Below are positions 1-31,165 of a stretch of 31,165 bases of DNA, one piece after another. The DNA is from a virus. Position 1 is the first letter of the stretch; each line of letters opens with the position of its first letter. The notes under the pieces were generated by a model. It searched no databases and was not told the DNA's origin. It saw nothing but the letters and a program-made list of their open reading frames with translations. A program made the position numbers and the translations under genes. Where the stretch lies: the IMG/VR virus record IMGVR_UViG_3300009002_000654, positions 1 to 31,165 of that record; one strand, given 5' to 3'.

Positions 1-13
1 AATGGAAAAATAA

Positions 14-49
14 TTGACAAAAAGTTACCTAGGTATTACTATTTTTTCG
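14..49 (+). promoter_or_regulatory. Candidate promoter for the 5' leader
   Basis: TTGACA lies at 14-19 and TATTTTTT at 40-47, with a 20-base spacer. Bacteroidota promoters have a -33 element and a TAnnTTTG-like -7 element with about 19 bases between, so the spacing fits that host group better than the 17 bases of E. coli. It would drive the folded leader that follows and the genes from 534. This is motif matching only. Confidence 0.4.
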
Positions 50-533
50 TATATTGTATACAAGATACAAAGGTACTCCTATACCTTCCATACCAAACAT
101 AGGTTAACATTCCCATCTGTGGGCCCTGAAATTATGCTACCGAAAGGGTAGGGTTGATAAGGACTTCCTGTAGATGCGATGATGTAAAATCAAATACGAA
201 ACTAGTGCAGTAAAGCAGTAACGCCCTATGGGGTGCAAAAATGAACATGATGGTCTTAACCAATTGTTGCCGATGAGCTTAGTCATTCTGTGTAGAAGCT
301 AGATAAGTTATGATTACTGAAAACCTATAAGCTTGTTGCTTACTAGGTAAATTTGCTTGGGGGAAATCCTCTCGCTCTAATAACCTTTCTACGTCAACTA
401 TTAAGACAACAGTAAACAACTCAGTAATTAACAATCACCACTTCCGTGGGTAGCGTAAGCGTACCACAGGAACAAATCACTCATACGGAGTGAGCTATCT
501 TTAAAATTAACTTAAACCATAAAAAGAAAAATT
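50..533 (+). ncRNA. Folded non-coding leader region
   Basis: No convincing gene is present in about 480 bases. Several local helices are visible: CTACC-GAAA-GGGTAG at 137-151 (GNRA tetraloop, one bulged G), CGCCC-TATG-GGGTG near 222-235, AAGC-TTGTT-GCTT near 330, a long hairpin at 442-472 closed by TTCC/GGAA and capped by a GTAA tetraloop, and TCACTC-ATACG-GAGTGA at 477-493. The region lies between a candidate promoter and a run of tiny genes, so it may be a structured 5' UTR or an independent RNA. I recognise no known RNA family. Confidence 0.35.
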
Positions 534-2007: not shown

Positions 2008-2094
2008 GGACCGTTCGTATAAGCTTGGAAGAGCTGGCAATACAACTGGGAAACACCATCTCAGTAACTATGAGTTCGACTCTCATACGGTTTT
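2008..2094 (+). tRNA. Non-canonical tRNA-like cloverleaf
   Basis: GGACCGT (2008-2014) pairs over all seven positions with ACGGTTT (2087-2093), two of them G-U. The T-arm is textbook: ATGAG-TTCGACT-CTCAT (2070-2086). The D-arm would be GTAT/ATAC with an outsized 19-base loop containing its own AGCT-TGGAAG-AGCT hairpin. The anticodon-position arm is ACTGGGA/TCTCAGT (2045-2065) with loop AACACCA, which lacks the universal U33 and a purine at 37. It could be a decayed tRNA or a tRNA mimic; I assign no amino acid. Confidence 0.4.
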
Positions 2095-2506: not shown

Positions 2507-3153
2507 GTAGCCCTTTGACCCTAACAGGTCACTGTCGTTGGCTCAAAGCCATCACTAGCATAGACAAGGTATTAATGCGTCTGCCACAAAAGCAGAAGAA
2601 TCAAGGTTCGAATCCTTGAGTTTTTAACTAGTAACACAAGTGACCACGGTACCTCGCTGAGAGGTATAACTATCTAACTACGCAGAATATGATGTTGCTC
2701 AACACCATCATCCTAAACGTAAGTAGTAAATTAACCCGGAATCAATAAGCAATAGCTGAGAGTGTGAGAACTCAACACTATTGACGAAGAAGCTTAACCT
2801 GAATTAACAGGTAGAACACAAGTTATTAAACAGCTTCACTTGTTTTATTTAGTTCTGTAGTGTATTGAATAAACAACTGTAACATGTAATCGAACATGTC
2901 TGACGATCTGTAAAGCAGTGAAACAGTGAGAATATATAAATGAATAGCGATGGTGTTGACTACCATTAGATAAATCTCCCTGATCTTAAGAGTCTACATA
3001 ATCTAGTAGTAGGCACTGGAAGGAAACTTATAAACAACAAACTTTAAAAGAGCAGTTGCGAACATAGGAGTACAGAGCACAAAGATCATACTAGTGTAAA
3101 AGGGATTCATTTATATATTCTCTATCATTAATCATCATAAATACCCAACCATC
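2507..3153 (+). ncRNA. Long folded non-coding region with tRNA-like core
   Basis: About 650 bases hold no gene. Near the start is a tRNA-like core (listed separately). Further helices: TACCTC-GCTGA-GAGGTA near 2650, a GATG-TTG hairpin near 2690-2712, nested AATAG...CTATT / TGAG...CTCA near 2751-2782, ACCTG-AATTAA-CAGGT near 2797-2812, and ACAAGT...ACTTGT followed by TTTATTT near 2817-2850, which resembles a terminator. After about 2860 structure is weaker. I see no known family. It may be one large RNA or several small ones. Confidence 0.35.
2549..2626 (+). tRNA. tRNA-like core with unpaired acceptor
   Basis: Spacing is canonical: TA at 2556-2557; D-arm GCAT (2558-2561)/ATGC (2575-2578) with a 13-base loop containing GG; anticodon-type arm TCTGC-CACAAAA-GCAGA (2580-2596); five variable bases; T-arm CAAGG-TTCGAAT-CCTTG (2602-2618). 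Two things are wrong for a tRNA: the flanks (CCATCAC and AGTTTTT) cannot pair as an acceptor stem, and position 33 is A. A literal reading of the loop gives CAA (Leu), but leucine tRNAs carry a long variable arm, absent here. Pseudogene or embedded tRNA-like module. Confidence 0.4.
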
Positions 3154-3342: not shown

Positions 3343-3766
3343 TTGTCTCCCTGAAACCACTAAGCTAAGTAAAACCTTAGAAGGTCAGGTTATGGATAAC
3401 AAGTTTGCATTATGCATCTCAATGAAGAGAGAAGTAAAGAGTTATAGTAAGTGTCATGACACTCTATAATTTGCGTTGAAGCACTTAACTTGTTATCCTA
3501 AATATCTTACTACAAATTCGATACATCACGCAGGTTGCGGGTAAAGCGCTACAAACTAATAGAAGTAGCTTAGGGTTCGATCCCCTTATGTATCACCACA
3601 ATTACCCGAATGTAGAAATACTTTCTGTAGTACACAGAATAAGGCAATAGTATAGAATTGTATTCTTCTACTCCTAGTCATTAAGGATCTCACTATCGGT
3701 GAGGAAAGCAAGAGTTTGGCGACTTGCATACAGTTCACTTTTTATCATCCACTAACATCAAACATC
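3343..3766 (+). ncRNA. Folded non-coding region with 12-bp closed domain
   Basis: No gene is evident. GGATAACAAGTT (3394-3405) pairs perfectly over 12 bp with AACTTGTTATCC (3487-3498), closing a domain of about 105 bases. Inside are TCTC-AATGAA-GAGA (near 3417-3430) and a nested arm TTATAG (3442-3447)/CTATAA (3464-3469) over GTGTCATGACAC (3451-3462). Before it stands CTAAG-TAAAAC-CTTAG. Behind it come the tRNA-like gene 3520-3598 and more hairpins: TCTGT-AGTAC-ACAGA near 3624-3638 and CTCAC-TATCG-GTGAG near 3689-3703. No known RNA family is recognised. Confidence 0.4.
3520..3598 (+). tRNA. tRNA-like gene with encoded CCA, odd anticodon arm
   Basis: GATACAT (3520-3526) pairs perfectly with ATGTATC (3588-3594), followed by discriminator A and an encoded CCA (3596-3598). 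The D-arm is CGC/GCG with GGGTAAA in the loop. The T-arm TAGGG-TTCGATC-CCCTT has four of five pairs. Where the anticodon arm belongs, the best helix is GCTAC/GTAGC with a 12-base loop. With canonical spacing the loop would be AACTAAT (CTA at 34-36, A at 33) on a stem with only three of five pairs. Acceptor and CCA suggest a processed, possibly charged RNA; decoding ability is doubtful. Confidence 0.5.
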
Positions 3767-4381
3767 ATGATTACCACTCCAAACATCAAAGCACTAGTAT
3801 ACAAGATCCAGCCTGAATTAGCTGAAGAACAACAGACCATCGTTGACTCTTTCAACCTACTCATTGAACAGGCTGCCAATACCCTCAACATAAAGAATGA
3901 GGAGCTACAGAAGGAGAAGAAAGCAACTCTCCTAACTATCAAGAATAAGCTCAAAGAAACTCTTTACATTCACCGTCAAGATAATATCTTCTGGGTTGTT
4001 GGTATCACTAAGTTTGACCACCTAACCACCAAGGAAGTAGAGCTCTTAACAGAGTCTAAGGCTAGCACATGGGAGAGTAGTCCTCCAAAGCTTACATCTT
4101 ACAAGAGTCCAGCCTTCCACATCATCAACAATGTTATCTTCTTAGCTGGTCGTGAGATCAAGCAACCATACCCACTATGGAAGACACATAACATTGATAG
4201 CAACAGTGCAATGGTATACCCTAACATAGGTATCAAGCATGGCGACAACGGCTACTACAGCTTCCGTCAAGGTCATTACTCAACACTTGAACTTGCTGCT
4301 GTATTCAACTTACCAGCACTACCTACAGAAGCACAAGCAACCGAATTACCTACATTGTCTGATTACAAGGCACGTAAATAA
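3767..4381 (+). CDS. Hypothetical protein (204 aa)
   Basis: A soluble protein of 204 residues. I chose the ATG at 3767, after AACATCAAACATC, rather than an in-frame TTG 51 bases upstream, because that leader recurs here. Residues about 12-60 look like a long helix pair rich in Glu, Gln and Lys. The middle and C-terminal parts contain many aromatic and Pro residues with HGDNGYYSFRQGHYS-type beta segments. No catalytic motif or known domain is recognised, and there is no export signal. It is the largest gene between 2000 and 8600. Confidence 0.75.
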   Translation: MITTPNIKALVYKIQPELAEEQQTIVDSFNLLIEQAANTLNIKNEELQKEKKATLLTIKNKLKETLYIHRQDNIFWVVGITKFDHLTTKEVELLTESKASTWESSPPKLTSYKSPAFHIINNVIFLAGREIKQPYPLWKTHNIDSNSAMVYPNIGIKHGDNGYYSFRQGHYSTLELAAVFNLPALPTEAQATELPTLSDYKARK

Positions 4382-6224: not shown

Positions 6225-6404
6225 ATGAATGAACAAGAAGCCTACATCGTAAATATCCTCGAAGGATTTGTAACCATGCTTAACAGAGCTGGTATCGATA
6301 ACCTTGAGGTCACTGACCTTACTTTCACCAACGGAATGCTTAATGTGACTACCAGAGATGGTGTTACAACTACGCTAACAATGGTACAAACTCCAGTCGT
6401 ATGA
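6225..6404 (+). CDS. Hypothetical mini-protein (59 aa)
   Basis: A 59-residue protein with an N-terminal helix (NEQEAYIVNILEGFVTMLN) followed by beta segments. An in-frame ATG at 6093 would add 44 residues. I prefer 6225 because the added segment has no clear fold and its DNA contains AGAGG...CCTCT followed by TTTATTT (near 6178-6212), a terminator-like hairpin. The stop overlaps the next start. Confidence 0.6.
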   Translation: MNEQEAYIVNILEGFVTMLNRAGIDNLEVTDLTFTNGMLNVTTRDGVTTTLTMVQTPVV

Positions 6405-6586
6405 CGCAACCAAAGCGTAACAGCCGAGGGCAAATGAGATGCCTAGATAAAGCCACAAATCGCACATGTATTGCTACATGTGATGACGAGGTGATAACTG
6501 AACTCTCTGAACTGAACATAACTGACTCATCAGGCAATCACCGTAAGGTATTCGCAGATGAAGTTATTTTTAACCAATACTATTAA
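6401..6586 (+). CDS. Hypothetical mini-protein (61 aa)
   Basis: A 61-residue protein, basic in the first half (TQPKRNSRGQMRCLDKATNR) and acidic in the second, with three Cys residues (CLDKATNRTCIATC) that could bind a metal or be incidental. ATGA overlap with the upstream gene. Unknown family. Confidence 0.6.
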   Translation: MTQPKRNSRGQMRCLDKATNRTCIATCDDEVITELSELNITDSSGNHRKVFADEVIFNQYY

Positions 6587-6596
6587 AAACTTTATT

Positions 6597-6752
6597 ATGA
6601 AAATGCGATTCACAGCAATCCACCCTGTAAAAGGAAAAAGAGTCACTTGCTACTGCAAAAATGGTTATGTCATTTTTGCTGGCGGTTGGAGAAAATGGGT
6701 ACAGCGAAAATTCCCTTCTTCCGAAGTAACTGGATTACTTCCTGCCAAGTAA
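6597..6752 (+). CDS. Basic mini-protein (51 aa)
   Basis: A very basic 51-residue protein with Lys, Arg and Trp throughout (HPVKGKRVTCYCKNGYVIF, then GGWRKWVQRKF). It may bind nucleic acid. I chose the ATG at 6597 after TTTATT; a longer in-frame start at 6558 would lie inside the previous gene. The stop overlaps the next start (TAATG). Confidence 0.55.
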   Translation: MKMRFTAIHPVKGKRVTCYCKNGYVIFAGGWRKWVQRKFPSSEVTGLLPAK

Positions 6753-6880
6753 TGCTAAAATCTCTTGCACTCAAGTGCGACGGTCGTATTGAGTATCGTT
6801 CGCTTCCCAATAACATCAAGCCTCAAGTGCTGATTAATGGGATCAGAGAAGCCTTAGCTAACGCAGGATTTGACAATTAA
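6752..6880 (+). CDS. Hypothetical mini-protein (42 aa)
   Basis: A 42-residue soluble protein beginning within a TAATG overlap and ending just before the hairpin at 6885. It has a beta-then-helix layout (IKPQVLINGIREALANAG). It ends the 5617-6880 gene string. Function unknown. Confidence 0.5.
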   Translation: MLKSLALKCDGRIEYRSLPNNIKPQVLINGIREALANAGFDN

Positions 6881-6884
6881 GAAT

Positions 6885-7463
6885 AACAGTTAACCTCGGA
6901 GGAATTTATCCGAGTGGTGTTAACTGTTCCGTGCTGTACGGATTAAACAGAGAGGGAAGTACCCCTTAATGTTCTCCATTGGAGTAATATACAGAAGCCG
7001 ACTCTCCGCTGATCCTGTAACGAGGATTATGACGAGTGCGTTAACGGTTAGTATGTGTGTAAGGATGTGGATCTTTATGCTATTACGTGTGTGCTATTTA
7101 TGTGACAAGGTACCTACGCCTTTAATATATCTAGTGATGCGGAGTTTTATAGCCTTCCTCAGTAAAGTATGCAAAATTGATTGCAGGAAAGAAGGTCATT
7201 TAATATAGGGAAGTACTTACATCCGAAAGGATCTCGAAAGAGTAATAACAATTCACTACCTGTGGTGGAAACTTATTAGGTGTATAGTTTAGGGACTGCA
7301 AATCCGCTAAACTATATTCAGAACTTATATTATCTTAAATGTTGATAGTCATACCATACTATCTTAGTAAAGTCATTGAAGCTGTTTTATCGCAGCGTGT
7401 ATGTACCCGAAAGGAGGTCAATGATATTGTAATGCTGAAACACACTAGGCATTATATTTTAAC
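6885..7463 (+). ncRNA. Large structured RNA candidate
   Basis: About 580 bases with dense helices. AACAGTTAAC (6885-6894)/GTTAACTGTT (6919-6928) has an inner CTCGGA/TCCGAG stem. Then CTCC-ATT-GGAG; ATCCT-GTAACG-AGGAT near 7013-7028; GCCTTC...GAAGGT over TGCAA-AATTGA-TTGCA near 7152-7196; two GAAA-capped hairpins (7221-7245); TATAGTTTAG (7283-7292)/CTAAACTATA (7307-7316) over a CTGCAAA loop; GATAGT/ACTATC (7344-7363); and a junction closed by CATTGA (7374-7379)/TCAATG (7418-7423). A tRNA-like element follows. GOLLD and ROOL RNAs share this size, ornateness and tRNA linkage, but I cannot confirm membership. Confidence 0.5.
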
Positions 7464-7558
7464 GTTTCTATGGGTTGGAGAGTTCAGTACAAGACTACAA
7501 AGGCCAAACCGCCGCAATAACGTTTGCGGAGACGCTGGTTCGAATCCAGCATGAATCA
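7464..7558 (+). tRNA. Expanded tRNA-like element
   Basis: The T-arm GCTGG-TTCGAAT-CCAGC (7534-7550) is perfect and followed by ATGAATC and A. A partial acceptor partner is GTTTCTAT (7464-7471), with one mismatch and one bulge. A long arm GGGTTGG (7472-7478)/CCAAACC (7504-7510) with a 25-base loop stands in the D position. The anticodon position holds CCGCAA-TAACGT-TTGCGG (7512-7529), giving a six- or eight-base loop rather than seven. It directly follows the large RNA candidate and might be its 3' domain. Confidence 0.4.
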
Positions 7559-7590
7559 CATAATTAGTAAACCCAAAACTACCAAACATC

Positions 7591-7923
7591 ATGGCAATCC
7601 TAACACTAGCCCAACAAGACTTTGTAGACGTCTGTGCTGGACTTGACACAGTATCTAAGCGTAAGCAACAGTGGTTGTCTCTTATTGCAGCAGACAAGCT
7701 TACATGTTCTGCTACAGGTATTAAGGTAGACCATGTAGAGTACCAACTCAATAAGCATTGGAATGGTAGATCTTCTTACCACTATAACTTCTACTCACTC
7801 GGAGGAGACTTTATGACAGTTGATCACATCATCCCAAAGTCTCGTGGAGGTTCTGTAATGGATATTGATAACCTACAACCTATGCGGGACAGAGAAAACT
7901 TTGCAAAAGGTAGTAAAATTTAA
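7591..7923 (+). CDS. HNH endonuclease-like protein
   Basis: A 110-residue protein whose C-terminal half is an HNH nuclease motif: V-D78-H79-I-I-P-K-S-R-G-G, then I-D-N94-L-Q-P and N103-x-x-K-G. These are the general-base His and the two metal-site positions of the family. No CxxC zinc knuckles are present. It would nick or cut DNA. Small free-standing HNH proteins in phages act as homing endonucleases or in packaging; here it follows a folded RNA/tRNA-like region, not a terminase, so a homing role is more likely. The start is AAACATC-ATG. Confidence 0.8.
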   Translation: MAILTLAQQDFVDVCAGLDTVSKRKQQWLSLIAADKLTCSATGIKVDHVEYQLNKHWNGRSSYHYNFYSLGGDFMTVDHIIPKSRGGSVMDIDNLQPMRDRENFAKGSKI

Positions 7924-7928
7924 ACCTT

Positions 7929-8189
7929 ATGAATGAATGGTTCAACAGCCTATCCAATGAAGAATGTCGACGTCTATCTCGTATCCATCTTGGGTGCTAT
8001 ATAGGTCGTGGGGAGAAATACTGGAATCCTAAGACAGTTGCCCTCTTTTACCGTAGAGTTAACCCAATTACTCAACAAGACTTAGACGATGCTCGTCTGG
8101 AAGGTTATGAGAGAGGGTTAACTAAAGGTGTTAACATCGGAATGCAATATATTAGGAGCACTCAATTATCAAATAATGACAACATGTAA
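7929..8189 (+). CDS. Hypothetical protein (86 aa)
   Basis: An 86-residue soluble protein, helical and rich in Arg and Tyr, with no recognised domain. It starts five bases after the HNH gene, so it is likely co-transcribed. Its 3' end overlaps the start of the next mini-gene (8176) in another frame. Confidence 0.6.
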   Translation: MNEWFNSLSNEECRRLSRIHLGCYIGRGEKYWNPKTVALFYRRVNPITQQDLDDARLEGYERGLTKGVNIGMQYIRSTQLSNNDNM

Positions 8190-9547: not shown

Positions 9548-9654
9548 AAGCTGTTGAAAATGACCTCAGTCGTCGTGCAGTTCGTGAGCTTTCCAAGCGT
9601 ACGGATAAGACTATGGCTAAGATGACTGACGCAGAGCTCCTGAGCCTCGTCTAA
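9544..9654 (+). CDS. Basic mini-protein (36 aa), GTG start
   Basis: A 36-residue ORF starting at GTG in a GTGA overlap. It is helical, basic in the centre and acidic at the end (TDAELLSLV). Codon use is C/G-ending (GTC, CTC, CGT, AAG), like the 1393 and 15415 genes, suggesting real translation. A terminator follows 13 bases later. Function unknown. Confidence 0.5.
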   Translation: MKAVENDLSRRAVRELSKRTDKTMAKMTDAELLSLV

Positions 9655-9667
9655 ACCCTTTTACCTT

Positions 9668-9736
9668 GCCTCTAAGGGCTTCTTTATGACTTAATGGTAG
9701 ATTATACTACAGTTAACGAGAGAGGCCCTTAGAAGC
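9668..9736 (+). terminator. Long stem-loop terminator
   Basis: GCCTCTAAGGGC (9668-9679) pairs with GCCCTTAGAAGC (9725-9736), 11 of 12 positions, with a 45-base loop, followed by TATTTAAAA. It closes the 9467-9654 pair. Confidence 0.5.
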
Positions 9737-9756
9737 TATTTAAAATCCTCCTATAT

Positions 9757-10173: not shown

Positions 10174-10251
10174 GGCGAAGTATTCCCCGGGACTTCTAAT
10201 CTTGAGCGTGATAACTGGATGCAAATGTGGGTTCGACTCCCATCTTCGTCA
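10174..10251 (+). tRNA. tRNA-like cloverleaf with displaced Arg(UCU) anticodon arm
   Basis: GGCGAAG (10174-10180) pairs fully with CTTCGTC (10244-10250), discriminator A. T-arm GTGGG-TTCGACT-CCCAT (10227-10243) is standard. The first internal arm, where a D-arm belongs, is CGGGA-CTTCTAA-TCTTG, a textbook anticodon arm with U33, UCU and A37. The second internal arm is GCGT-GATAACTGG-ATGC (10206-10222), whose GG-bearing nine-base loop resembles a D-loop. If UCU decodes, this is a tRNA-Arg for AGA/AGG. An isolated D-arm-like TAGCCAAAGGTAAAGC and a GCAGG/CCTGC hairpin lie just upstream (10139-10168). Confidence 0.5.
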
Positions 10252-12782: not shown

Positions 12783-12839
12783 TGCGGGGTAGCTCAATGT
12801 AGAGCCGGTGTTTTGTGGGTTTGACTCCCACCCCCGCTA
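12783..12839 (+). tRNA. tRNA-like RNA lacking the anticodon arm
   Basis: GCGGGG (12784-12789) pairs with CCCCGC (12832-12837); TA follows; the D-arm is GCTC-AATGTA-GAGC (12792-12805), with a shortened loop missing GG; the T-arm is GTGGG-TTTGACT-CCCAC (12815-12831). Between the D and T arms are only nine bases (CGGTGTTTT) instead of about 23, so there is no anticodon stem-loop. All helices present are clean. It cannot decode. It may be a deleted tRNA relic or a mini-tRNA that still binds tRNA-handling enzymes. Confidence 0.6.
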
Positions 12840-16031: not shown

Positions 16032-16104
16032 AGACTCATAGCTCAATTGGTAGAGCGCTAGTTTGAAATACTAGAGGTCGGTGGTTCAAATCCACCTGAG
16101 TCTA
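16032..16104 (+). tRNA. tRNA-Phe (GAA)
   Basis: A fully canonical tRNA. Acceptor AGACTCA/TGAGTCT (7 bp), TA, D-arm GCTC-AATTGGTA-GAGC, anticodon arm CTAGT-TTGAAAT-ACTAG with U33 and anticodon GAA, variable AGGTC, T-arm GGTGG-TTCAAAT-CCACC, discriminator A. CCA is not encoded, so the host must add it. It is the only standard tRNA in the window and a useful yardstick for the aberrant ones. Confidence 0.95.
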
Positions 16105-16119
16105 CAAAAATAAATCCTT

Positions 16120-21507: not shown

Positions 21508-21751
21508 CAAAACAATAGTTGTTCCAGCTAAACCTGAACACACTACGTTAGTGTATAGCCATACTACCTGTGACAAGTGTAAAATTACTATACCTAGCAA
21601 TGATTGGGGTACACCTATAATGGTTACCCAACTTAGGTTGGAAACTCCTAACATAAGTCGTCATGACAATTTTGAGATTTGTGAGTCGTGTAAGGCAGAA
21701 TTAGACGAGGCAATGACTAAGTTAGGTTATGTGTTTAACCCTATTAGATGA
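21497..21751 (+). CDS. Zinc-ribbon protein (84 aa)
   Basis: An 84-residue protein with CDKC near residue 25 and CESC near 62, separated by a beta-rich stretch: a four-Cys zinc ribbon. It overlaps both neighbours (11 bases upstream, ATGA downstream into the polymerase gene). A small DNA- or protein-binding accessory of replication is plausible. Confidence 0.65.
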   Translation: MRHNKTIVVPAKPEHTTLVYSHTTCDKCKITIPSNDWGTPIMVTQLRLETPNISRHDNFEICESCKAELDEAMTKLGYVFNPIR

Positions 21752-22653
21752 CAAAGCAATTATGGTGTTACGATTTAGAGTCATTTCCTAACTTATTCTT
21801 ATTAGGTTTTAAAAATCCTAAAACAGGAGAGGTACGAATCTTTGAGATAAGTACAAGGAAAAATAACTCTATATCAGCAAGAAGATTTCTTAGGGAAAGG
21901 GTGAGTAAACTAGTAGCGTTTAATTCAACGAATTATGATGCTATCCTACTAGACTACTTCCTGAAGACTAAGACAACTAACCCTAAGAAGTTTAATGAAT
22001 TGAGTGTTAGGACAATCAATGGAAATTCTAGCAACCATAATCCAATCCTCCCACATTTAGACCTGTTCAAAGTTCTCCACTTCGACAACAAGAACAAAAG
22101 AACCAGCCTTAAATACTGTGAGTTTGGCTTAAAAATGCCAGTAGTACAAGATTTACCCTACTCATTTGATAGAGATCTAACAAATGGGCAAATTCAAAAG
22201 GTAGTAGAATATCTACACCACGACCTAGCAGCAACAGAAAGGTTATACCTCGAATATCGAGATAAGATATACCTTCGAGCAGTCATACAGAAAGAGTATG
22301 GTTTACGTTGTATGAATTGGTCAGATAGTAAGATAGGAGAAAAGCTCCTACTAAAATTATACTGTGAAGAAACAGGAGATGATCCAGAGATTATCACTGC
22401 GCAGAGAACAGACTTTAGAACTGTTCGTATTAATGATATGTTACCAGATTACTTAGACTTTAAAGTGCCTGAATTCAAAAAGGCTTTTGAAGAAGTAAGA
22501 ACTGTTACCTTAAGTAAAGGTAACTGGTCCCTTGCACATGTATTCTACTTTAATGATATCAAGTACACAATTGGTTTAGGCGGTATACACTCTACAGATA
22601 GAGGTATATGGAAAGCTAGCAAAGAGCTGTTACTTCATGATGAAGATGTGGGT
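21748..22653 (+). CDS. DNA polymerase family B, exon 1 (302 aa)
   Basis: The N-terminal part of a family B DNA polymerase: 3'-5' exonuclease motifs YDLES (Asp9, Glu11), FNSTNYD, and YLHHDLAATERLY (Exo III type), then the GGIHS segment seen in protein-primed and crAss-like polymerases, then the start of motif A (DEDVG). It stops at the group I intron splice site; reading on into the intron gives a TAA at 22672-22674. After splicing to 23634 the frame continues as DVG-GYYPSLI, giving 646 residues. Translation couples to the zinc ribbon by ATGA. Confidence 0.9.
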
Positions 22654-23633
22654 AAACATAGCTGCCCACAATAAACGCATTGAATTCAGGGAAATCTTAC
22701 TATTAAGTTAAAGACAATCCTGAGCGAAGCCCGGAAGGGAACGTGCAGAGACTATTCCGAAAGGAAGTACAAAAGAGTTGATTACTCTTTTGGAAGCGGT
22801 GCGCTTTTCGCTATAAAATTAAAATAAAATGAATGGTTATATTTATAAATTAACTCTACTAATTAATACAAAGACTTACAAAAAAGGAGAAACTTATATA
22901 GGACAACATAAAGGAAACCGAAGCTGGTATATTACTAGTGGAAGAATACCTTTATCTATCATTGCAAAATATGGTAAAAAAGTTTTCAAGAGAACTATCA
23001 TTATGGATAACCTATCAGGTTTTCGTAACCGATCTGCTTGGGAATGCTTTTATATAAATCTCTACCAAACCAATCGGCCTGTAACAGGTAAAGGACTAAA
23101 TCTTAATGACGGTAAAAAAATGTATTTCGGTGACCGTACAGGAGAAAATAATCCTAATTACGGAAATACTTGGTCTCCAGATATGCGTAGTTATATGTCT
23201 TATGTAAAGACCAAATACTATAAGGAAAATCCAGAAGCTAAAGAAGCTTTGAAAGCAAGTGCCAAAAAAGGACAAGAGGCTCTTCAGGAAAAACTTAAAG
23301 ATCCGGAATACAAAAAAGAGTTTGGTAAAAAAGTATCAGCTAGAAAAACTAGAAATACTATTTGTAAATTTAGTAAAGAACGAGAGTTAATCAAAGAATA
23401 TAGTACTATTCATGAAGTTTTAGAAGAGAGCCCAGAATATACTAAAAGTACAATTTTATCCACCTGTAACGGTTGGAAAAATACGTATAAAGGATATATT
23501 TGGAGGTATCGAAATATAGAAACTGGTTTAATTGTAGAACCAGAAAAGAAAAGATGATATAGTCCGATCCTTGGAGAAATCCAAGCTAATTTTTATAAAA
23601 ATCTTAAGAATTAAAATCAATGAGACAGGTAAG
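22654..23633 (+). mobile_element. Group I intron in DNA polymerase gene
   Basis: P1 pairs exon GTGGGT (22648-22653) with IGS GCCCAC (22664-22669), ending in the required U-G at the splice site. P10 pairs exon 2 GGCTA (23634-23638) with TAGCT (22659-22663). Core: CAATCCTGAGC and GTGCAGAGACTA, with P7 GACTA (22750-22754)/TAGTC (23560-23564). The last base is G (23633). The nuclease ORF lies between the two halves of P7, in a peripheral loop. Length 980. Splicing restores polymerase motif A. Confidence 0.9.
22829..23557 (+). CDS. GIY-YIG homing endonuclease in polymerase intron
   Basis: A 242-residue protein with the GIY-YIG nuclease core at the N-terminus: GYIYKLT (residues 3-9) and TYIGQH (23-28 region), and catalytic Glu in SAWECFYINLY. 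A NUMOD3-like element GENNPNYGN follows near residue 108, then a Lys-rich linker and a C-terminal helix-turn-helix-like DNA-binding module, as in I-TevI relatives. It would cut intron-less polymerase alleles to spread the intron. Its stop is three bases from the P7 3' strand. Confidence 0.88.
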   Translation: MNGYIYKLTLLINTKTYKKGETYIGQHKGNRSWYITSGRIPLSIIAKYGKKVFKRTIIMDNLSGFRNRSAWECFYINLYQTNRPVTGKGLNLNDGKKMYFGDRTGENNPNYGNTWSPDMRSYMSYVKTKYYKENPEAKEALKASAKKGQEALQEKLKDPEYKKEFGKKVSARKTRNTICKFSKERELIKEYSTIHEVLEESPEYTKSTILSTCNGWKNTYKGYIWRYRNIETGLIVEPEKKR

Positions 23634-24668
23634 GGCTATTACCCATCCCTCATTGCTAATCTATTAGTTTGTCCTTCTCACCTAAACAAAGAAGCTTTCG
23701 TTCGAGTAATCTCGGAAAAGCTTGTAATCCCTAGAGCTACAATACATAAGCCTAGGTCAAAAGATAAGACTCTTCACTGGAAAGAGCGTAAGTTATCAGC
23801 TGCTTATTCCGATATGCTAAAGCTAGCAGCAAATTCAATCTCAGGTAAGCTAAAGGACTCATATTCATTTATATATGATCCTGCAGAGAATGCTAGAATG
23901 ACCTTAGCTGGTCAAATGTCCTTACTCATGTTAATGGATATGATAGCACAAGAATTCCCCGACATGCACTTTTTACAATCTAATACTGATGGGTTTACAA
24001 TGACCTACCCTCCTAAGCATAAGAGAGCAGTAAAAAAGATATGTAAGAAATGGGAGAAGATTACTAAGTTAGACTTAGAAGATTGTTATCCTAATGCTAT
24101 TTATCAAAGAGATGGTAATAACTATATATGGGACTTCGGTGAGTATCAAAAACTTAAAGGAGCCTATGAAGTTGATAAGAAGATAGGTAATGAACTTATC
24201 TTAAATAAAGATTCTTCTAAGAGAATAGTAGCTATTGCTGTTAGAGAATACTTTACCAAAGGTATACCAATTGAGAATACTATAACAGGCCATAAAGATA
24301 TTTATGACTTCTGCATTGGTAAGAAGAATAGAAAAGCTCCTAAAAAGGGTAAATGCTATTTTGAATATCAATTAAATCCATATTCAGCTAGAATTAAAAT
24401 TAAGCAGACTAAAGTTTTACGTTATTATATCTCTAACAAAGGAGGAATGGTGCGTAAGATGTATGAGCAAGGAGATGAAGAGTTCTTGGAAGCTGGACTG
24501 AAAGGTAAAGACAACAAAGGACACTATTGGAAACTGCGTCTGTTTAATAAGTATAAGGAGAAAGAAGATTATGATATAGACTATTCGTATTATTTACGAG
24601 CGGCTCAAAAATTAATAGATGCAATCGAAAAGTACCATCAACCACCAGAGGAAAAGACTGGTAAATAA
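23634..24668 (+). CDS. DNA polymerase family B, exon 2 (344 aa)
   Basis: The palm and thumb part. GYYPSLI completes motif A; AANSISGKLKD is motif B (KxxxNSxYG type); QSNTDGF is motif C, holding the second catalytic Asp. The C-terminal 150 residues are Lys-rich, as in phage polymerases. Open frame continues upstream into the intron, so a start before 23634 would be false. Spliced length 646, in the range of short family B enzymes. The 3' end overlaps the next gene by 50 bases. Confidence 0.9.
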   Translation, partial: GYYPSLIANLLVCPSHLNKEAFVRVISEKLVIPRATIHKPRSKDKTLHWKERKLSAAYSDMLKLAANSISGKLKDSYSFIYDPAENARMTLAGQMSLLMLMDMIAQEFPDMHFLQSNTDGFTMTYPPKHKRAVKKICKKWEKITKLDLEDCYPNAIYQRDGNNYIWDFGEYQKLKGAYEVDKKIGNELILNKDSSKRIVAIAVREYFTKGIPIENTITGHKDIYDFCIGKKNRKAPKKGKCYFEYQLNPYSARIKIKQTKVLRYYISNKGGMVRKMYEQGDEEFLEAGLKGKDNKGHYWKLRLFNKYKEKEDYDIDYSYYLRAAQKLIDAIEKYHQPPEEKTGK

Positions 24669-25101
24669 ATTTACAAAGTATAAAGAAGTTAATCCAGAAA
24701 GTGTTAAAGTAGACCTTATTTTAGGAGAATCAATCCATCGAGCCGATATTACATTTAAAGATGGTAACAGATTACGATGGTCGCTTAGAGTTACTGAGAA
24801 TAATATTGTAATTTCTAAACCTAGAATGTGGGAGTATCCAATGGAGAAGCTAGCTGTAATGGATTATCTAACAGCTACTATATTTTCCAATGATACTTAT
24901 ACCATTATAGAAGATAGAGATTTACATCAGCCTAATAGATATGTTGATCAGTATAAGATACAAGGAGAGATATCGACAGCTGGAACAGTAGTATACTGTT
25001 TAGCAACTGATGTTTTTCATGAGTCTCATTTTATTGACTACGATATTAGAATACTTAGTAAACAGGCGAAAACCTATAAATTCCCAATGCATAATATATG
25101 A
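24619..25101 (+). CDS. Hypothetical replication-module protein (160 aa)
   Basis: A 160-residue soluble alpha/beta protein with no recognised motif. It starts inside the end of the polymerase gene (50-base overlap) and joins the helicase gene by ATGA. The position between polymerase and helicase suggests a DNA-transaction role. A start within the overlap is uncertain; about 15 residues could be trimmed. Confidence 0.65.
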   Translation: MQSKSTINHQRKRLVNKFTKYKEVNPESVKVDLILGESIHRADITFKDGNRLRWSLRVTENNIVISKPRMWEYPMEKLAVMDYLTATIFSNDTYTIIEDRDLHQPNRYVDQYKIQGEISTAGTVVYCLATDVFHESHFIDYDIRILSKQAKTYKFPMHNI

Positions 25102-26189
25102 TAAGGGATAGGATACAAACACAAGCACTGGAAGCGCTTAAAAAACACTCCTATAATTGTATTCTTAGTATTATACCTAGATTAGGCAAATCAAAGATTA
25201 TTATAGATGCATTAAAGGAAATACCAAATAAAAAGATCCTTATTTCTGCACCATACAATACGGTGTTAGATTCATGGCGACAAGAGTTTGTTAAATGGGA
25301 GTATGAAGGTGATGTAACTCTCACTAATTCCCGATCAATAGAAAAGCACGAACTAGATACCTACGACCTAATAGTAATAGATGAGTGCCACCTCTTGTCA
25401 GCTCGACAGATAAAGCATTTAAAGCCTTCTAAGGCCCATAAAATACTTATGTCGGGTACTATGTCCAAAGATACGTTAAAGTCTCTTAAAGGTAGCTTAA
25501 AACTCAAGCTAGCGTATCATTACGACATAAAGCAAGGTATCAAAGATAAGGTTATTTCTGACGTAGAAATTAACATTATTCATGTACCGTTAGATACGTC
25601 TAATAAGTATATTGAAGCAGGTACTAAGGATAAGAAGTTTAAGTCTACGGAAAGAGATAATTATGATTATCACTCCAAGAGATTAAGACAAGCCTTTGCT
25701 ATTGCAAAGAAAAATGGTAACCATGACTACGTTAAGTTAGTAGCAGGTGCCAGAGCTAGACAGGTTTATGCCTATGAGTCTAAGCAAGAACATACTAAGA
25801 AGCTTATCAAAAAGCTAAGTAAAGAAAAGAAGCTTATATTTACTATGTTAACGGCTAACAACCTTACAGAGTATAAGCATGACTCAAAAACTAAGGAAGA
25901 TAATCTATCTAAGTTTATTGAAGGTTCTATTAATGAACTGCAAGTAGTAAAGATGGCATCAGTTGGTGTCACTATACCAAATCTAAAGTGTTGTATATTT
26001 CATCAGATGAACTCTTCTTCTGAAACAGGTATGCAATCTATTATGAGAGCTTGTAATTATATGGAAGACGAAAAAGCCATAATTTACATCCTAGCATATC
26101 AAGATACCCAAGATGAAAAGTGGGTAGAGAAAGCAGTGTCTATGTTCCCAAGGGACAAGATCAATTACATTCATTATAAAAACATTTGA
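25098..26189 (+). CDS. Superfamily 2 DNA helicase
   Basis: A 363-residue helicase. Motif I: IPRLGKSK (Gly30-Lys31-Ser32). Motif II: DECH (95-98) after LIVI. Motif III: MSGTM (118-122). Motif VI: QSIMRAC, with the arginine finger, in the second RecA domain. Compact, comparable to phage UvsW-like or restriction-type SF2 helicases. It should remodel or unwind DNA using ATP. ATGA overlap with the gene before and directly followed by 26191. Confidence 0.9.
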   Translation: MIRDRIQTQALEALKKHSYNCILSIIPRLGKSKIIIDALKEIPNKKILISAPYNTVLDSWRQEFVKWEYEGDVTLTNSRSIEKHELDTYDLIVIDECHLLSARQIKHLKPSKAHKILMSGTMSKDTLKSLKGSLKLKLAYHYDIKQGIKDKVISDVEINIIHVPLDTSNKYIEAGTKDKKFKSTERDNYDYHSKRLRQAFAIAKKNGNHDYVKLVAGARARQVYAYESKQEHTKKLIKKLSKEKKLIFTMLTANNLTEYKHDSKTKEDNLSKFIEGSINELQVVKMASVGVTIPNLKCCIFHQMNSSSETGMQSIMRACNYMEDEKAIIYILAYQDTQDEKWVEKAVSMFPRDKINYIHYKNI

Positions 26190-28223: not shown

Positions 28224-29046
28224 GGACAAAACAATATTTATAAATGAAGATAACCAAGATATACGGATTATACGATCCTAGAGATTTTAAAAAAGTGTAT
28301 TATATAGGTAAAACAGTAAGTAAATACCTTAATAATAGGCTGTGCTGTCATCTATATGAAGCACGTAATATGACAAAAAGTAATAGTGTTAAAATTCAAT
28401 GGATTAATTCTCTTTTGATGCAGGGGATAAAACCTCAAATTAAACTAATTACTAAGTGTTATAAAAACTCTAATGTAGTAGAGTCGCAGATAATTACAGA
28501 CTATTTGAAAAGAGGGAATCCTTTAACTAACACTTATGATATAGGTGGTAAAAATAAAGGAAGGATAGTATCTGTTGATCAAAAGAAAAGAATTAGACAA
28601 ACATTAAAGGAAAAATATGCTTCTGGAGAGATCATTTCTAAAAGTACAAAACCTATTAATGTATATACTTTTGATAATCAGTTAAGTCATACCTTTCCTT
28701 CTTTGAAAGAAACTATTAAACAACTTAAAGTTTCTGAAGATGTAATTAGACGATGCTGCAAAGATCACAATAAACGTCCGTTATGTGGTTATTATTTTAG
28801 ATATAAATAGTTTAGCCGTCACTAAATTCCGTGAATTGCTGGAACATCCTTCGGGACAATCAGCAGCGAAGCTTTGTAGAAATACACTGAACGTTCAACG
28901 ACTAGTACATGAAGTCTAAACAGATTAAGCTGTAGATGGTAAAGTGCCACGAGCGCGGAACAATGTTTTATAACATTGATGATATAGTCTGAGCTATACG
29001 GTAACGTATAGAAACAGTAATTAAAAAAGCTGTGATAACAAAACTG
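28224..29046 (+). mobile_element. Group I intron inside the Walker A codons
   Basis: P1: exon GACGGT (28218-28223) with IGS GCCGTC (28815-28820), U-G at the splice site. P10: GTTT (28810-28813) with exon AAAC (29048-29051). P7: GACTA (28900-28904) with TAGTC (28985-28989). The core includes CAATCAGCAGCGAAGC and TGAACGTTCAACGACTA, typical of phage group IA introns. The last base is G (29046). The GIY-YIG ORF occupies the P1 loop. Length 823. Confidence 0.9.
28244..28810 (+). CDS. GIY-YIG homing endonuclease in ATPase intron
   Basis: A 188-residue nuclease. GIY-YIG core: KIYGLYDP and VYYIGKT in the first 25 residues, an Arg/His-bearing helix (NRLCCHLYEARN), and Glu in VVESQII. The C-terminal half holds a NUMOD1-like module (INVYTFDNQLSHTFPSLKE) and a helix-turn-helix. 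It starts 20 bases into the intron. It should cut intron-less alleles of the ATPase gene. It differs clearly from the nuclease of the polymerase intron. Confidence 0.88.
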   Translation: MKITKIYGLYDPRDFKKVYYIGKTVSKYLNNRLCCHLYEARNMTKSNSVKIQWINSLLMQGIKPQIKLITKCYKNSNVVESQIITDYLKRGNPLTNTYDIGGKNKGRIVSVDQKKRIRQTLKEKYASGEIISKSTKPINVYTFDNQLSHTFPSLKETIKQLKVSEDVIRRCCKDHNKRPLCGYYFRYK

Positions 29047-29691
29047 AAAACAAAGTTGACTAAGTACCTTACAATTATTGTACCTTATCTACTAAACAAA
29101 TCTCATGGTCTTAAGTTTAAGACCATATACTTTGCCTTAGAAGAAAGTGAAGAAGAGTTTATTGATCACCTAACCCTCCTTCTGCTGAATGAGCGCTATG
29201 GTATTGAAATAGACTACCACGATCTTAATTCATACAGAGAGGACTTGATTGACACTTCTGTAATGGATAAGATGTATTCCTTACAATCAGAGGTAGATGA
29301 GATTATGTCTCACGTATATATCCATGACGATATATCACATCCTACAGGGATGTATATGAAGTGCAAGGAGTATGCTGAACAATGGGGAACTCTAGTAGAC
29401 GGTAAGTATGTTCCGCATGACGATGATGAGTTTGTATTAGTAGTCTGTGATCACGTATCTCTTATATCAAAGGAGAGAGATCATGCACTCAAACAAACTC
29501 TTACTAAGCATGAAGCTTTAGCTAAATGGTCAACTGACTATTGTCTGAAGGAAATCACTAAGAGACTGAAGTGGACTGTATTTAATGTACAGCAAACTAC
29601 AATGACTAGTGAAGGTTCAGATAAGAAGAAGATGAATACACTAGAACCTTCTCCTGAAGATCTAGCTACGAATAAGGAATTGTATAGGGAT
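29047..29691 (+). CDS. DnaB/RecA-like ATPase, exon 2 (215 aa)
   Basis: Begins KTKLTKY, the second half of Walker A. Then FKTIYFALEESEEEF, a strand-turn of the RecA core with its acidic residue (Walker A'), and DEFVLVVCDHVSLI, the Walker B Asp. The segment TVFNVQQTT carries the sensor-like Gln pair. This is the SF4 helicase/DnaB or RecA-like fold. A GTG at 29032 in the same frame is intron sequence, not a start. The exon ends at YRD (29691). Confidence 0.85.
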
Positions 29692-29934
29692 AGATGAATG
29701 TCCCTAAAAAACCCCGTGAATTGTCTGGGAACCCCTGAAGAGGGCAATCAGCAGCGAAGCTTTGTAGAAATACACTGAACGTTCAACGACTAGATGTGAG
29801 TCCCTATGGGATAATAACTCATCCACGAGCGCGGGGCATTCATATTAATTATGAATGATGATATAGTCTGAACTGCATATATAACAGAAAAAAATGCAGA
29901 AGTAGTAATTAAAAAAGCTACGATAACATAATTG
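29692..29934 (+). mobile_element. Short ORF-less group I intron
   Basis: P1: exon TAGGGAT (29685-29691) with GTCCCTA (29700-29706), U-G at the splice site. P7: GACTA (29788-29792) with TAGTC (29864-29868). The core is nearly the same as that of the 28224 intron, including CAGCAGCGAAGC through CAACGACTA and the 3' end GTAATTAAAAAAGCT...GATAACA. The last base is G (29934). Only 243 bases, no ORF. P10 is weak (two pairs). Confidence 0.85.
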
Positions 29935-30171
29935 ATGAAAGTATTACTAGCTCTCTTTAGTCCATTTAAGAATAAGATTGCTGACTATAGAGGATATACT
30001 ATAGTTAATAGAAGTGGAAGAGGATTAAGAGATGCTTATCGTAATTTAGGTATCCTTAAGAATAGATATGGTCCACCGGGGGTTAATATTGGTTTGCACT
30101 TTGATGGTGCAACTGGTAAGTATACAGAATTAGACAAAGACAAACAAGAATTACATTTTACACACGAATAA
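29935..30171 (+). CDS. DnaB/RecA-like ATPase, exon 3 (78 aa)
   Basis: MKVLLALFSPFKNKIADYRG follows YRD from exon 2, a stretch seen near the C-terminus of phage DnaB-like ATPases (YRDADxxLxLFSPF). LGILKNRYGPPGVNIGLHFDG is the final strand and arginine-finger region. The full spliced protein is 350 residues (57+215+78). It would be the replicative helicase or a recombination ATPase; the two are not separable by eye. Confidence 0.82.
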   Translation: MKVLLALFSPFKNKIADYRGYTIVNRSGRGLRDAYRNLGILKNRYGPPGVNIGLHFDGATGKYTELDKDKQELHFTHE

Positions 30172-30180
30172 TTACTTTTA

Positions 30181-30984
30181 ATGAGTATTTTTCCCGAAGC
30201 GAATAAGATTAAAAAAGAGGATATCAATCCTAACCCTAAGAAGTTGCTTATTGTTAAGCCACCAAAGACAGGAGGTACCAGACTAGCTGGTGCTTTAAAA
30301 GATAGCTTTCTACTTGACCTAGATGGTAGTAGTGACTTCTATGAAACAGAAGCAAAGGTATTTGATTTAAAGAAGAATTGGAAAGAGTATAACGAAAAGC
30401 AAGTTAAGCCAGTACCGTATGGTGCTTATGCAATTAAGTATCTAAATCACCTACACGCTAAGTGTAAGGAGGAAGGTCCTTTGGCTAAATATTTTATTTT
30501 AGATACGGTTACTGAGTTTGAGGAGATTGCTAAGTACTTAGCTCTTATGGAATACAAGAAGACTGCTATGGGTAAGTCATTTACTGAAGACGACATCTCC
30601 CTATTACCAATGGGAGCGGGTTATGGTCGAATCAGGAGTGCTTTTCAAAAGCTATATAGTATGCTAGAAGTATGCTATACCGACTGTATCATCTTTATCG
30701 CTCATCCTAAGAGCTCTTCTATTCAAGTAGATGGTAAAGAATTACAAGCTACTGATGTAGCTCTTACAGGTAAGCTTAAGCTTATTCTCGCAGGAGATGT
30801 AGATGCTATGGGTACGATGTATCGTAAGCCTAAGTCTAACATCAACATTCTGAACTTTAAAACTACGCAGCAAGATCTAGTATCTGGTGCAAGAAGTCCT
30901 CACTTGGAGAATCGACAGATTGAAATAAGCGAATTACTAGAAGATGGCACTTTTGTAACCCATTGGGATAAGATTTTTGTTTAA
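30181..30984 (+). CDS. AAA_24/Sak4-like RecA-fold ATPase
   Basis: A 267-residue protein like the phage nucleotide-binding AAA_24 family: LLIVKPPKTGGTRL at residues 22-35 is the P-loop, LLDLDG is the next strand, and YFILDTVTEFEEI the Walker B region, with IIFIAHPK as the following strand. The canonical P-loop Lys is replaced: PKTGGT instead of PKTGKT (Gly32). Family members anneal or recombine DNA, or support replication. It starts nine bases after the helicase-like gene. Confidence 0.8.
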   Translation: MSIFPEANKIKKEDINPNPKKLLIVKPPKTGGTRLAGALKDSFLLDLDGSSDFYETEAKVFDLKKNWKEYNEKQVKPVPYGAYAIKYLNHLHAKCKEEGPLAKYFILDTVTEFEEIAKYLALMEYKKTAMGKSFTEDDISLLPMGAGYGRIRSAFQKLYSMLEVCYTDCIIFIAHPKSSSIQVDGKELQATDVALTGKLKLILAGDVDAMGTMYRKPKSNINILNFKTTQQDLVSGARSPHLENRQIEISELLEDGTFVTHWDKIFV

Positions 30985-31025
30985 GCGAATTAACTACACA
31001 ATTTACCTATATATAATTATATTTT

Positions 31026-31165
31026 ATGTCTAACATGTTTAAGAATTATTCAGACGATTTTAAGAAGCAGGAAGCAGAGATTGCAGAGCGTAAAGCCGCA
31101 AATACTATCAACCCCGTAATGGTTGGCACAGCCCCTGTAAAGATTTTAGCGATTAACCCAGATCA
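31026..31165 (+). CDS. Hypothetical protein, cut by window end
   Basis: The first 46 residues of a gene running off the window. Polar, Lys/Glu-rich helix (DDFKKQEAEIAERKAAN) then a beta-like segment. The start follows TATATTTT with no Shine-Dalgarno sequence. No family can be called from this part. Confidence 0.65.
   Translation, partial: MSNMFKNYSDDFKKQEAEIAERKAANTINPVMVGTAPVKILAINPD

What the first reader, a model, noticed from the sequence alone, without database searches (positions are those of the whole stretch)
6885..7463. Large ornate RNA candidate beside a tRNA-like element
Seen: about ten helices in 580 bases, including a perfect 10-bp stem, a second 10-bp stem topped by a CUGCAAA loop, GNRA-capped hairpins and a closed multi-helix junction (7374-7423), with no credible gene. 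Known: GOLLD and ROOL RNAs are hundreds of bases long, ornate, phage-borne and next to tRNAs. Inference: this is such an RNA or a new class.
Basis: partly seen in the sequence, partly recalled or inferred. Interest (0 to 1): 0.75.

Follow-up and report, generated by a model that had tools for sequence, protein, structure and literature searches.

The report
Orphan phage noncoding stretch beside tRNA-like element
A 580-base stretch of a Bacteroidota-type phage genome codes for no protein and can fold into several clear hairpins next to a damaged-looking tRNA gene, but it matches no known RNA family and has no detectable relatives, so it is an untested RNA candidate; the odd tRNA-like elements around it are the more interesting part.

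Summary
No credible gene lies in 6881-7463. The region is not GOLLD, ROOL, HEARO, raiA or any other Rfam family. No DNA, profile or peptide search found a relative, so covariation could not be tested. Its folding energy (z -2.3 to -3.0) is ordinary for this genome (579-nt tiles: mean -2.06, sd 1.45). A real GOLLD scored only -1.45 in the same test, so energy neither supports nor refutes an RNA. The neighbour at 7464-7558 is a degenerate tRNA with a 30-nt D-loop (22.2 bits; threshold 29). It is one of six non-canonical tRNA-like elements in the window; one (12783-12839) lacks the whole anticodon arm yet scores 35.6 bits. That armless form recurs in IMG/VR phage contigs: 47 distinct examples have intact, covarying acceptor stems. 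Best reading: a lineage-specific untranslated RNA or spacer inside an island of non-decoding tRNA-like elements, perhaps trimmed by host tRNA-processing enzymes. Confidence is low to moderate.

The parts
6881..7463 (+). 583-nt stretch without a credible gene, between the ORF ending at 6880 and the tRNA-like element; candidate untranslated RNA or spacer
   Evidence: codon scores, no Pfam match, no Rfam match, no relatives
6885..6928 (+). hairpin: perfect 10-bp stem AACAGTTAAC/GTTAACTGTT with inner CTCGGA/TCCGAG stem, 5 nt after the upstream stop codon
   Evidence: fold; 160-nt tile z -3.2
7220..7240 (+). two adjacent short GNRA-capped hairpins (ATCC-GAAA-GGAT, CTC-GAAA-GAG)
   Evidence: fold
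7283..7316 (+). hairpin: 10-bp stem, bulged G, GGA/TCC, loop CUGCAAA (same letters as a tRNA-Cys anticodon loop with its last three stem pairs; resemblance only)
   Evidence: fold; 160-nt tiles z about -2.4
7373..7424 (+). 7-bp helix TCATTGA/TCAATGA enclosing GCTG/CAGC and a GNRA hairpin (junction)
   Evidence: fold
7464..7558 (+). tRNA-like element: T-arm GCTGG-TTCGAAT-CCAGC intact; D-stem GGTT/AACC with 30-nt loop; anticodon stem CCGCA/TGCGG with 8-nt loop; acceptor only 4 of 7 pairs
   Evidence: cmscan 22.2 bits; no acceptor partner of 6 or more pairs nearby, none of 7 within 900 nt
7591..7923 (+). HNH endonuclease gene directly downstream
   Evidence: Pfam PF01844, codon score 0.31
2008..2093 (+). 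tRNA-like element: 7/7 acceptor, T-arm 5 bp, enlarged D-loop, 7-bp anticodon stem, no U33
   Evidence: fold
2556..2618 (+). tRNA-like element: D, anticodon and T arms (31.6 bits) without a matching acceptor stem
3520..3594 (+). tRNA-like element: 7/7 acceptor followed by ACCA, 12-nt anticodon loop, 4-bp T stem
10174..10250 (+). tRNA-like element: 7/7 acceptor, T-arm, anticodon arm CGGGA-CUUCUAA-UCUUG, no D-arm, long variable region
   Evidence: cmscan 28.7 bits
12783..12839 (+). tRNA-like element without any anticodon arm: 6 acceptor pairs, D-arm, about 9-nt linker, T-arm
   Evidence: cmscan 35.6 bits, above the tRNA gathering score of 29; fold
16032..16105 (+). canonical tRNA-Phe(GAA), the only standard tRNA in the window
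   Evidence: ARAGORN, 74.8 bits

Best explanation
6881-7463 is a non-coding stretch of an early-region transcript of a divergent Crassvirales-like phage, most likely a lineage-specific untranslated RNA or long structured leader. It runs from just after an upstream stop codon to a degenerate tRNA at 7464-7558. Proposed mechanism (inferred, not shown): host RNase P and RNase Z still recognise the acceptor/T-arm half of such tRNA-like elements, cut the polycistronic transcript there, and so set the 3' end of the upstream RNA and the 5' end of the HNH-gene message, while the hairpins protect the released fragment. Shown here: it is non-coding; the hairpins exist in the sequence; the tRNA-derived element and five siblings exist on the same strand. 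Inferred: transcription, processing, and any function.
For: No credible ORF. Two 10-bp stems and clustered GNRA hairpins, rarer than in most shuffles and genome tiles. Low local fold z at 6881-7040 (-3.2) and 7201-7440 (about -2.4). Same-strand tRNA-derived elements: six perfect 5-bp T-arms on the + strand against a shuffle mean of 0.6 and maximum of 3. Four of the six odd elements keep 6 or 7 acceptor pairs although their D or anticodon halves are rebuilt or missing. In L. brevis phages LBR48 and Lb a comparable set of odd tRNAs also sits in a 450-670-nt gap without annotated genes.
Against: Overall stability is ordinary for this genome; the middle third is unstructured by energy. No homologue, hence no covariation. 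The adjacent element is the worst-preserved of the set at the acceptor (4 of 7 pairs), a poor RNase P substrate on paper. No promoter-like or terminator-like sites beyond shuffle expectation on the + strand. No transcript data.
Confidence: 0.4

Rival explanations
1. Neutral or decaying spacer: remnants of an old tRNA island and mobile elements in a region rich in tiny ORFs, with no present function; the hairpins are the best of many chance stems.
For: Overall fold z equals the genome average. The neighbouring tRNA is degenerate. Other long non-coding gaps lie nearby (1-533, 2619-3153, 3343-3775) with z -1.4, -0.5 and -2.2. Group I introns and HNH or GIY-YIG-type endonuclease genes show mobile-element traffic.
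Against: Two perfect 10-bp stems and GNRA clustering are above most shuffles; phages usually lose 600-nt useless stretches (general knowledge).
Confidence: 0.37
2. Cis-regulatory leader of the downstream HNH operon (attenuator or translation control), not a free RNA.
For: Same strand, directly upstream of a real gene; ASL-like CUGCAAA hairpin.
Against: A tRNA-like element separates it from the gene; no terminator-like site on the + strand; no known leader family.
Confidence: 0.13
3. A member of GOLLD, ROOL or another described large RNA family.
For: Size, phage location, GNRA hairpins (6 with at least 2 bp in 579 nt; a real GOLLD stretch has 7 in 438 nt), tRNA-like neighbour.
Against: No covariance-model match at any useful threshold, while the GOLLD model readily found a GOLLD in an unrelated phage contig (194.9 bits).
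Confidence: 0.03
4. A DNA-level element (replication, recombination or homing target) whose palindromes act as DNA.
For: Palindromic stems beside an HNH gene; positive GC skew 0.15 in this stretch against 0.01 overall.
Against: No direct-repeat or iteron array reported in the first 9 kb; nothing else points to it.
Confidence: 0.07

Closest known systems
GOLLD RNA (Rfam RF02032)
   Same: Phage-borne, hundreds of nt, many helices with GNRA caps, often near tRNAs and sometimes with tRNAs in its linker (PMC12286853).
   Different: No covariance-model match here; no covariation evidence; the conserved 3' region is absent.
ROOL RNA (Rfam)
   Same: Phage-borne, about 600 nt, near tRNA islands (PMC12286853).
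   Different: No covariance-model match.
Odd tRNA clusters in Lactobacillus brevis phages LBR48 and Lb
   Same: Same-strand set of tRNA-like elements with a missing anticodon arm or an inserted D-loop in a gap without annotated genes of 448-667 nt.
   Different: Unrelated phages and hosts; located just before the terminase genes; no sequence resemblance to 6881-7463 noticed (these gaps were compared by eye only; one search did not include them).
tRNA (RF00005)
   Same: The 7464-7558 neighbour keeps a perfect T-arm and cloverleaf order.
   Different: 22.2 bits, below the 29-bit threshold; 30-nt D-loop, 8-nt anticodon loop, 4 of 7 acceptor pairs.

Membership tests
GOLLD | match to the RF02032 covariance model (conserved 3' region) | tested here: not met
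   model works elsewhere (194.9 bits)
GOLLD | phage or prophage location near tRNAs | tested here: met
   window is a virus record; tRNA-like element at 7464-7558
GOLLD | covariation-supported secondary structure | not testable with these tools
   no homologues found
ROOL | match to the Rfam ROOL covariance model | tested here: not met
Other Rfam families (HEARO, raiA, group I/II introns, tmRNA, RNase P) for 6881-7463 | covariance-model match | tested here: not met
   only weak chance hits to eukaryotic snoRNA and miRNA models
New structured RNA class | covarying base pairs in at least a few diverged homologues | not testable with these tools
   no homologue in the collections searched
New structured RNA class | folding energy beyond genome background | tested here: inconclusive
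   z -2.3 to -3.0 against genome tiles -2.06 (sd 1.45); a true GOLLD scores -1.45, so the test has little power
tRNA (7464-7558) | RF00005 gathering score of 29 bits | tested here: not met
   22.2 bits
Protein-coding gene at 6969-7208 | coding-like codon use and a conserved relative | tested here: not met

The most novel reading that the evidence does not exclude
The window carries a set of tRNA-derived elements that cannot decode (anticodon arm missing, D-arm missing, or loops enlarged) but mostly keep the acceptor and T-arm half. Anticodon-armless versions with intact, covarying acceptor stems recur across many unrelated phages. They would be a general phage device for cutting transcripts with host tRNA-processing enzymes, or for engaging or decoying tRNA-handling factors, and 6881-7463 would be an RNA released at one such site.
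Probability: 0.25. Interest if true: 0.72.

Novelty: new member of a known kind. Interest (0 to 1): 0.34.

Why it matters
As it stands the stretch is one more orphan phage RNA candidate without relatives. If it is transcribed and stable it adds to the short list of large phage RNAs found next to tRNAs. The wider pattern could matter more: tRNA-like genes without anticodon arms that keep covarying acceptor stems in many phages would mean phages use the tRNA shape for something other than decoding, which is directly testable with RNase P and small-RNA sequencing.

Tried and rejected
Rfam at gathering and permissive thresholds: nothing for the region. Coding: negative codon score, no Pfam, no peptide relatives. 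An intron-split tRNA with its 5' half upstream: no 7-pair acceptor partner within 900 nt of the T-arm at 7534. ARAGORN with relaxed thresholds and intron search: swamped by chance hits. Homologues through neighbours: the HNH, phosphoesterase and polymerase genes gave no IMG/VR relative; Sak4 gave one near-identical contig overlapping only 29133-31165 and distant relatives of 35-47% identity; the HNH gene in GTDB gave one non-syntenic hit. DNA pattern GGTGGAAA...GGACTGCAAATCC in IMG/VR gave two hits with no resemblance beyond the pattern, apparently coding. Similarity between this and the window's other non-coding gaps: none. Thermodynamic z as a discriminator: rejected after a real GOLLD scored -1.45. 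Two scripts read ARAGORN input wrongly and reported no tRNAs; one search corrects them. The ORF-gap measure is unreliable and not used.

Full report
WHAT THE WINDOW IS. The window is a 31,165-base linear IMG/VR virus record. Its Sak4-like protein (30181-30984) and SNF2-type helicase (25098-26189) match mainly Crassvirales and other phages of Bacteroidota hosts at low identity. The split DNA polymerase is PHROG 1252. No close relative is in INPHARED. In IMG/VR only one 7.5-kb contig is near-identical (99.4%), and it overlaps only 29133-31165. The next relatives are 35-47% identical in Sak4.

THE OBSERVATION. All named stems are at the stated places. Against 200 dinucleotide shuffles a longest perfect stem of 10 WC pairs or more occurs 5 times, two stems of 8 or more 12 times, and four GNRA hairpins 5 times. 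Against 106 genome tiles each is reached by 5 or 6. So the local hairpins are somewhat unusual, each at about the 2-6% level, and they were picked by eye. The energy of the whole stretch is not unusual: z -3.0 or -2.3 depending on the shuffle set, while 579-nt tiles of the same genome average -2.06 with sd 1.45. Stability is concentrated at 6881-7040 and 7201-7440; 7041-7280 is at shuffle level.

CALIBRATION. The same energy test on a real GOLLD (RF02032 match of 194.9 bits in an unrelated phage contig; L243 minus strand, the sense strand judged from its GNRA loops) gives z -1.45. Failure to stand out therefore does not refute an RNA, and a z near -3 does not support one. Only covariation or expression could decide.

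CODING. ORF 6969-7208 has codon score -0.09 and ORF 7339-7554 -0.06. Most confidently coding ORFs nearby score 0.11 to 0.31, though two accepted short ORFs score about 0. Neither ORF has a Pfam match at E<=0.1. Peptide scans of IMG/VR with both gave no relative.

FAMILY MEMBERSHIP. No Rfam family matches at gathering score, at E<=5 over the window, or at E<=10 over 6300-8000 apart from the sub-threshold tRNA and eukaryotic small-RNA noise. GOLLD and ROOL are therefore rejected as families.

HOMOLOGUES. None by blastn in INPHARED at E<=10, by blastn in 45 related IMG/VR records, by nhmmer over 0.73 Mb of related and reference loci, by degenerate peptide patterns or by a DNA pattern on the CUGCAAA hairpin (the two hits share nothing beyond the pattern). 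Covariation is therefore untestable here.

THE tRNA-LIKE NEIGHBOUR AND ITS SIBLINGS. 7464-7558 aligns to tRNA at 22.2 bits. Read by hand it has acceptor GTTTCTA/ATGAATC (4 of 7 pairs), D-stem GGTT/AACC with a 30-nt loop, anticodon stem CCGCA/TGCGG with an 8-nt loop, and a perfect T-arm. The window holds five more such elements on the same strand: 2008-2093 (7/7 acceptor, enlarged D-loop, 7-bp anticodon stem), 2556-2618 (no acceptor partner), 3520-3594 (7/7 acceptor, 12-nt anticodon loop), 10174-10250 (7/7 acceptor, no D-arm) and 12783-12839 (no anticodon arm at all, yet 35.6 bits). There is one canonical tRNA-Phe at 16032-16105. Perfect 5-bp T-arms number 6 on the + strand against a shuffle mean of 0.6 (maximum 3 of 60 shuffles).

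THE ARMLESS FORM IS NOT UNIQUE. Of 80 loci fetched, 58 have all 7 acceptor pairs. After removing ordinary tRNAs caught by the pattern and collapsing duplicates, 43 of 52 distinct elements keep 7/7 pairs, and every acceptor position shows several Watson-Crick types. The pattern did not require the acceptor, so this is real covariation. A slightly different filter gives 47 distinct armless elements, 18 of them within 1.5 kb of a canonical tRNA. Rfam scores many at 38-56 bits as tRNA. In L. brevis phages LBR48 and Lb the armless element lies in a gap without annotated genes before the terminase genes, followed by further odd tRNAs, including a tRNA-Ile(GAU) that by hand reading has an insertion of roughly 55 nt in its D-loop. 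In 3-SAC12 the annotators called it a tRNA-OTHER pseudogene. Papers searched here did not describe such a class, but the library lacks most subscription journals.

MECHANISM AND VERDICT. The best-supported account is modest: a non-coding stretch of a phage transcript in an island of tRNA-derived elements, possibly released by host tRNA processing (0.4), against a decaying spacer (0.37). The steps shown are absence of coding, presence of the hairpins, and reality of the tRNA-derived elements. Transcription, processing and function are inferred. The finding as titled is an orphan that cannot be tested with the data at hand; the tRNA-like elements around it deserve separate study.

Noticed in passing
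window 12783-12839; L122-L201; L240:4001-4058; L241:4000-4057: tRNA-like element lacking the whole anticodon arm (35.6 bits to RF00005); the same architecture recurs in dozens of phage contigs with intact, covarying acceptor stems and a 10-12-nt linker.
   Followed up: partly
window 2008-2093, 2556-2618, 3520-3594, 10174-10250: Four more non-canonical tRNA-like elements on the same strand (enlarged D-loop, missing acceptor, 12-nt anticodon loop, missing D-arm).
   Followed up: partly
L241:3927-4592 (Lactobacillus phage Lb): Gap without annotated genes holding an armless tRNA, a tRNA-Ile(GAU) with an insertion of roughly 55 nt in the D-loop (hand reading), and two further T-arms inside a GTGCTTG/CAAGCAC closing stem.
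   Followed up: partly
window 28756-29011 and 29682-29887: Two group I introns (92.5 and 68.7 bits); a GIY-YIG/NUMOD1-type endonuclease ORF lies at 28244-28810.
   Followed up: no
window 22675-23570: DNA polymerase gene split between 21748-22674 and 23571-24668 by a stretch with an endonuclease-like ORF (weak NUMOD3) and a group-I-like 3' end (GATGATATAGTCC); probably a third intron that Rfam's model misses.
   Followed up: no
window 1-533, 2619-3153, 3343-3775: Other long non-coding stretches with no Rfam match and no similarity to each other or to 6881-7463.
   Followed up: partly
window 9640-9745: Very stable imperfect hairpin (over 20 pairs, z -4.6) in a non-coding gap, probably a terminator-type or regulatory structure.
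   Followed up: no
L243:1501-1938 (minus strand), IMG/VR contig of 282,855 bases: A GOLLD RNA (194.9 bits) in a jumbo-sized phage contig, met by chance in the armless-tRNA pattern scan.
   Followed up: no
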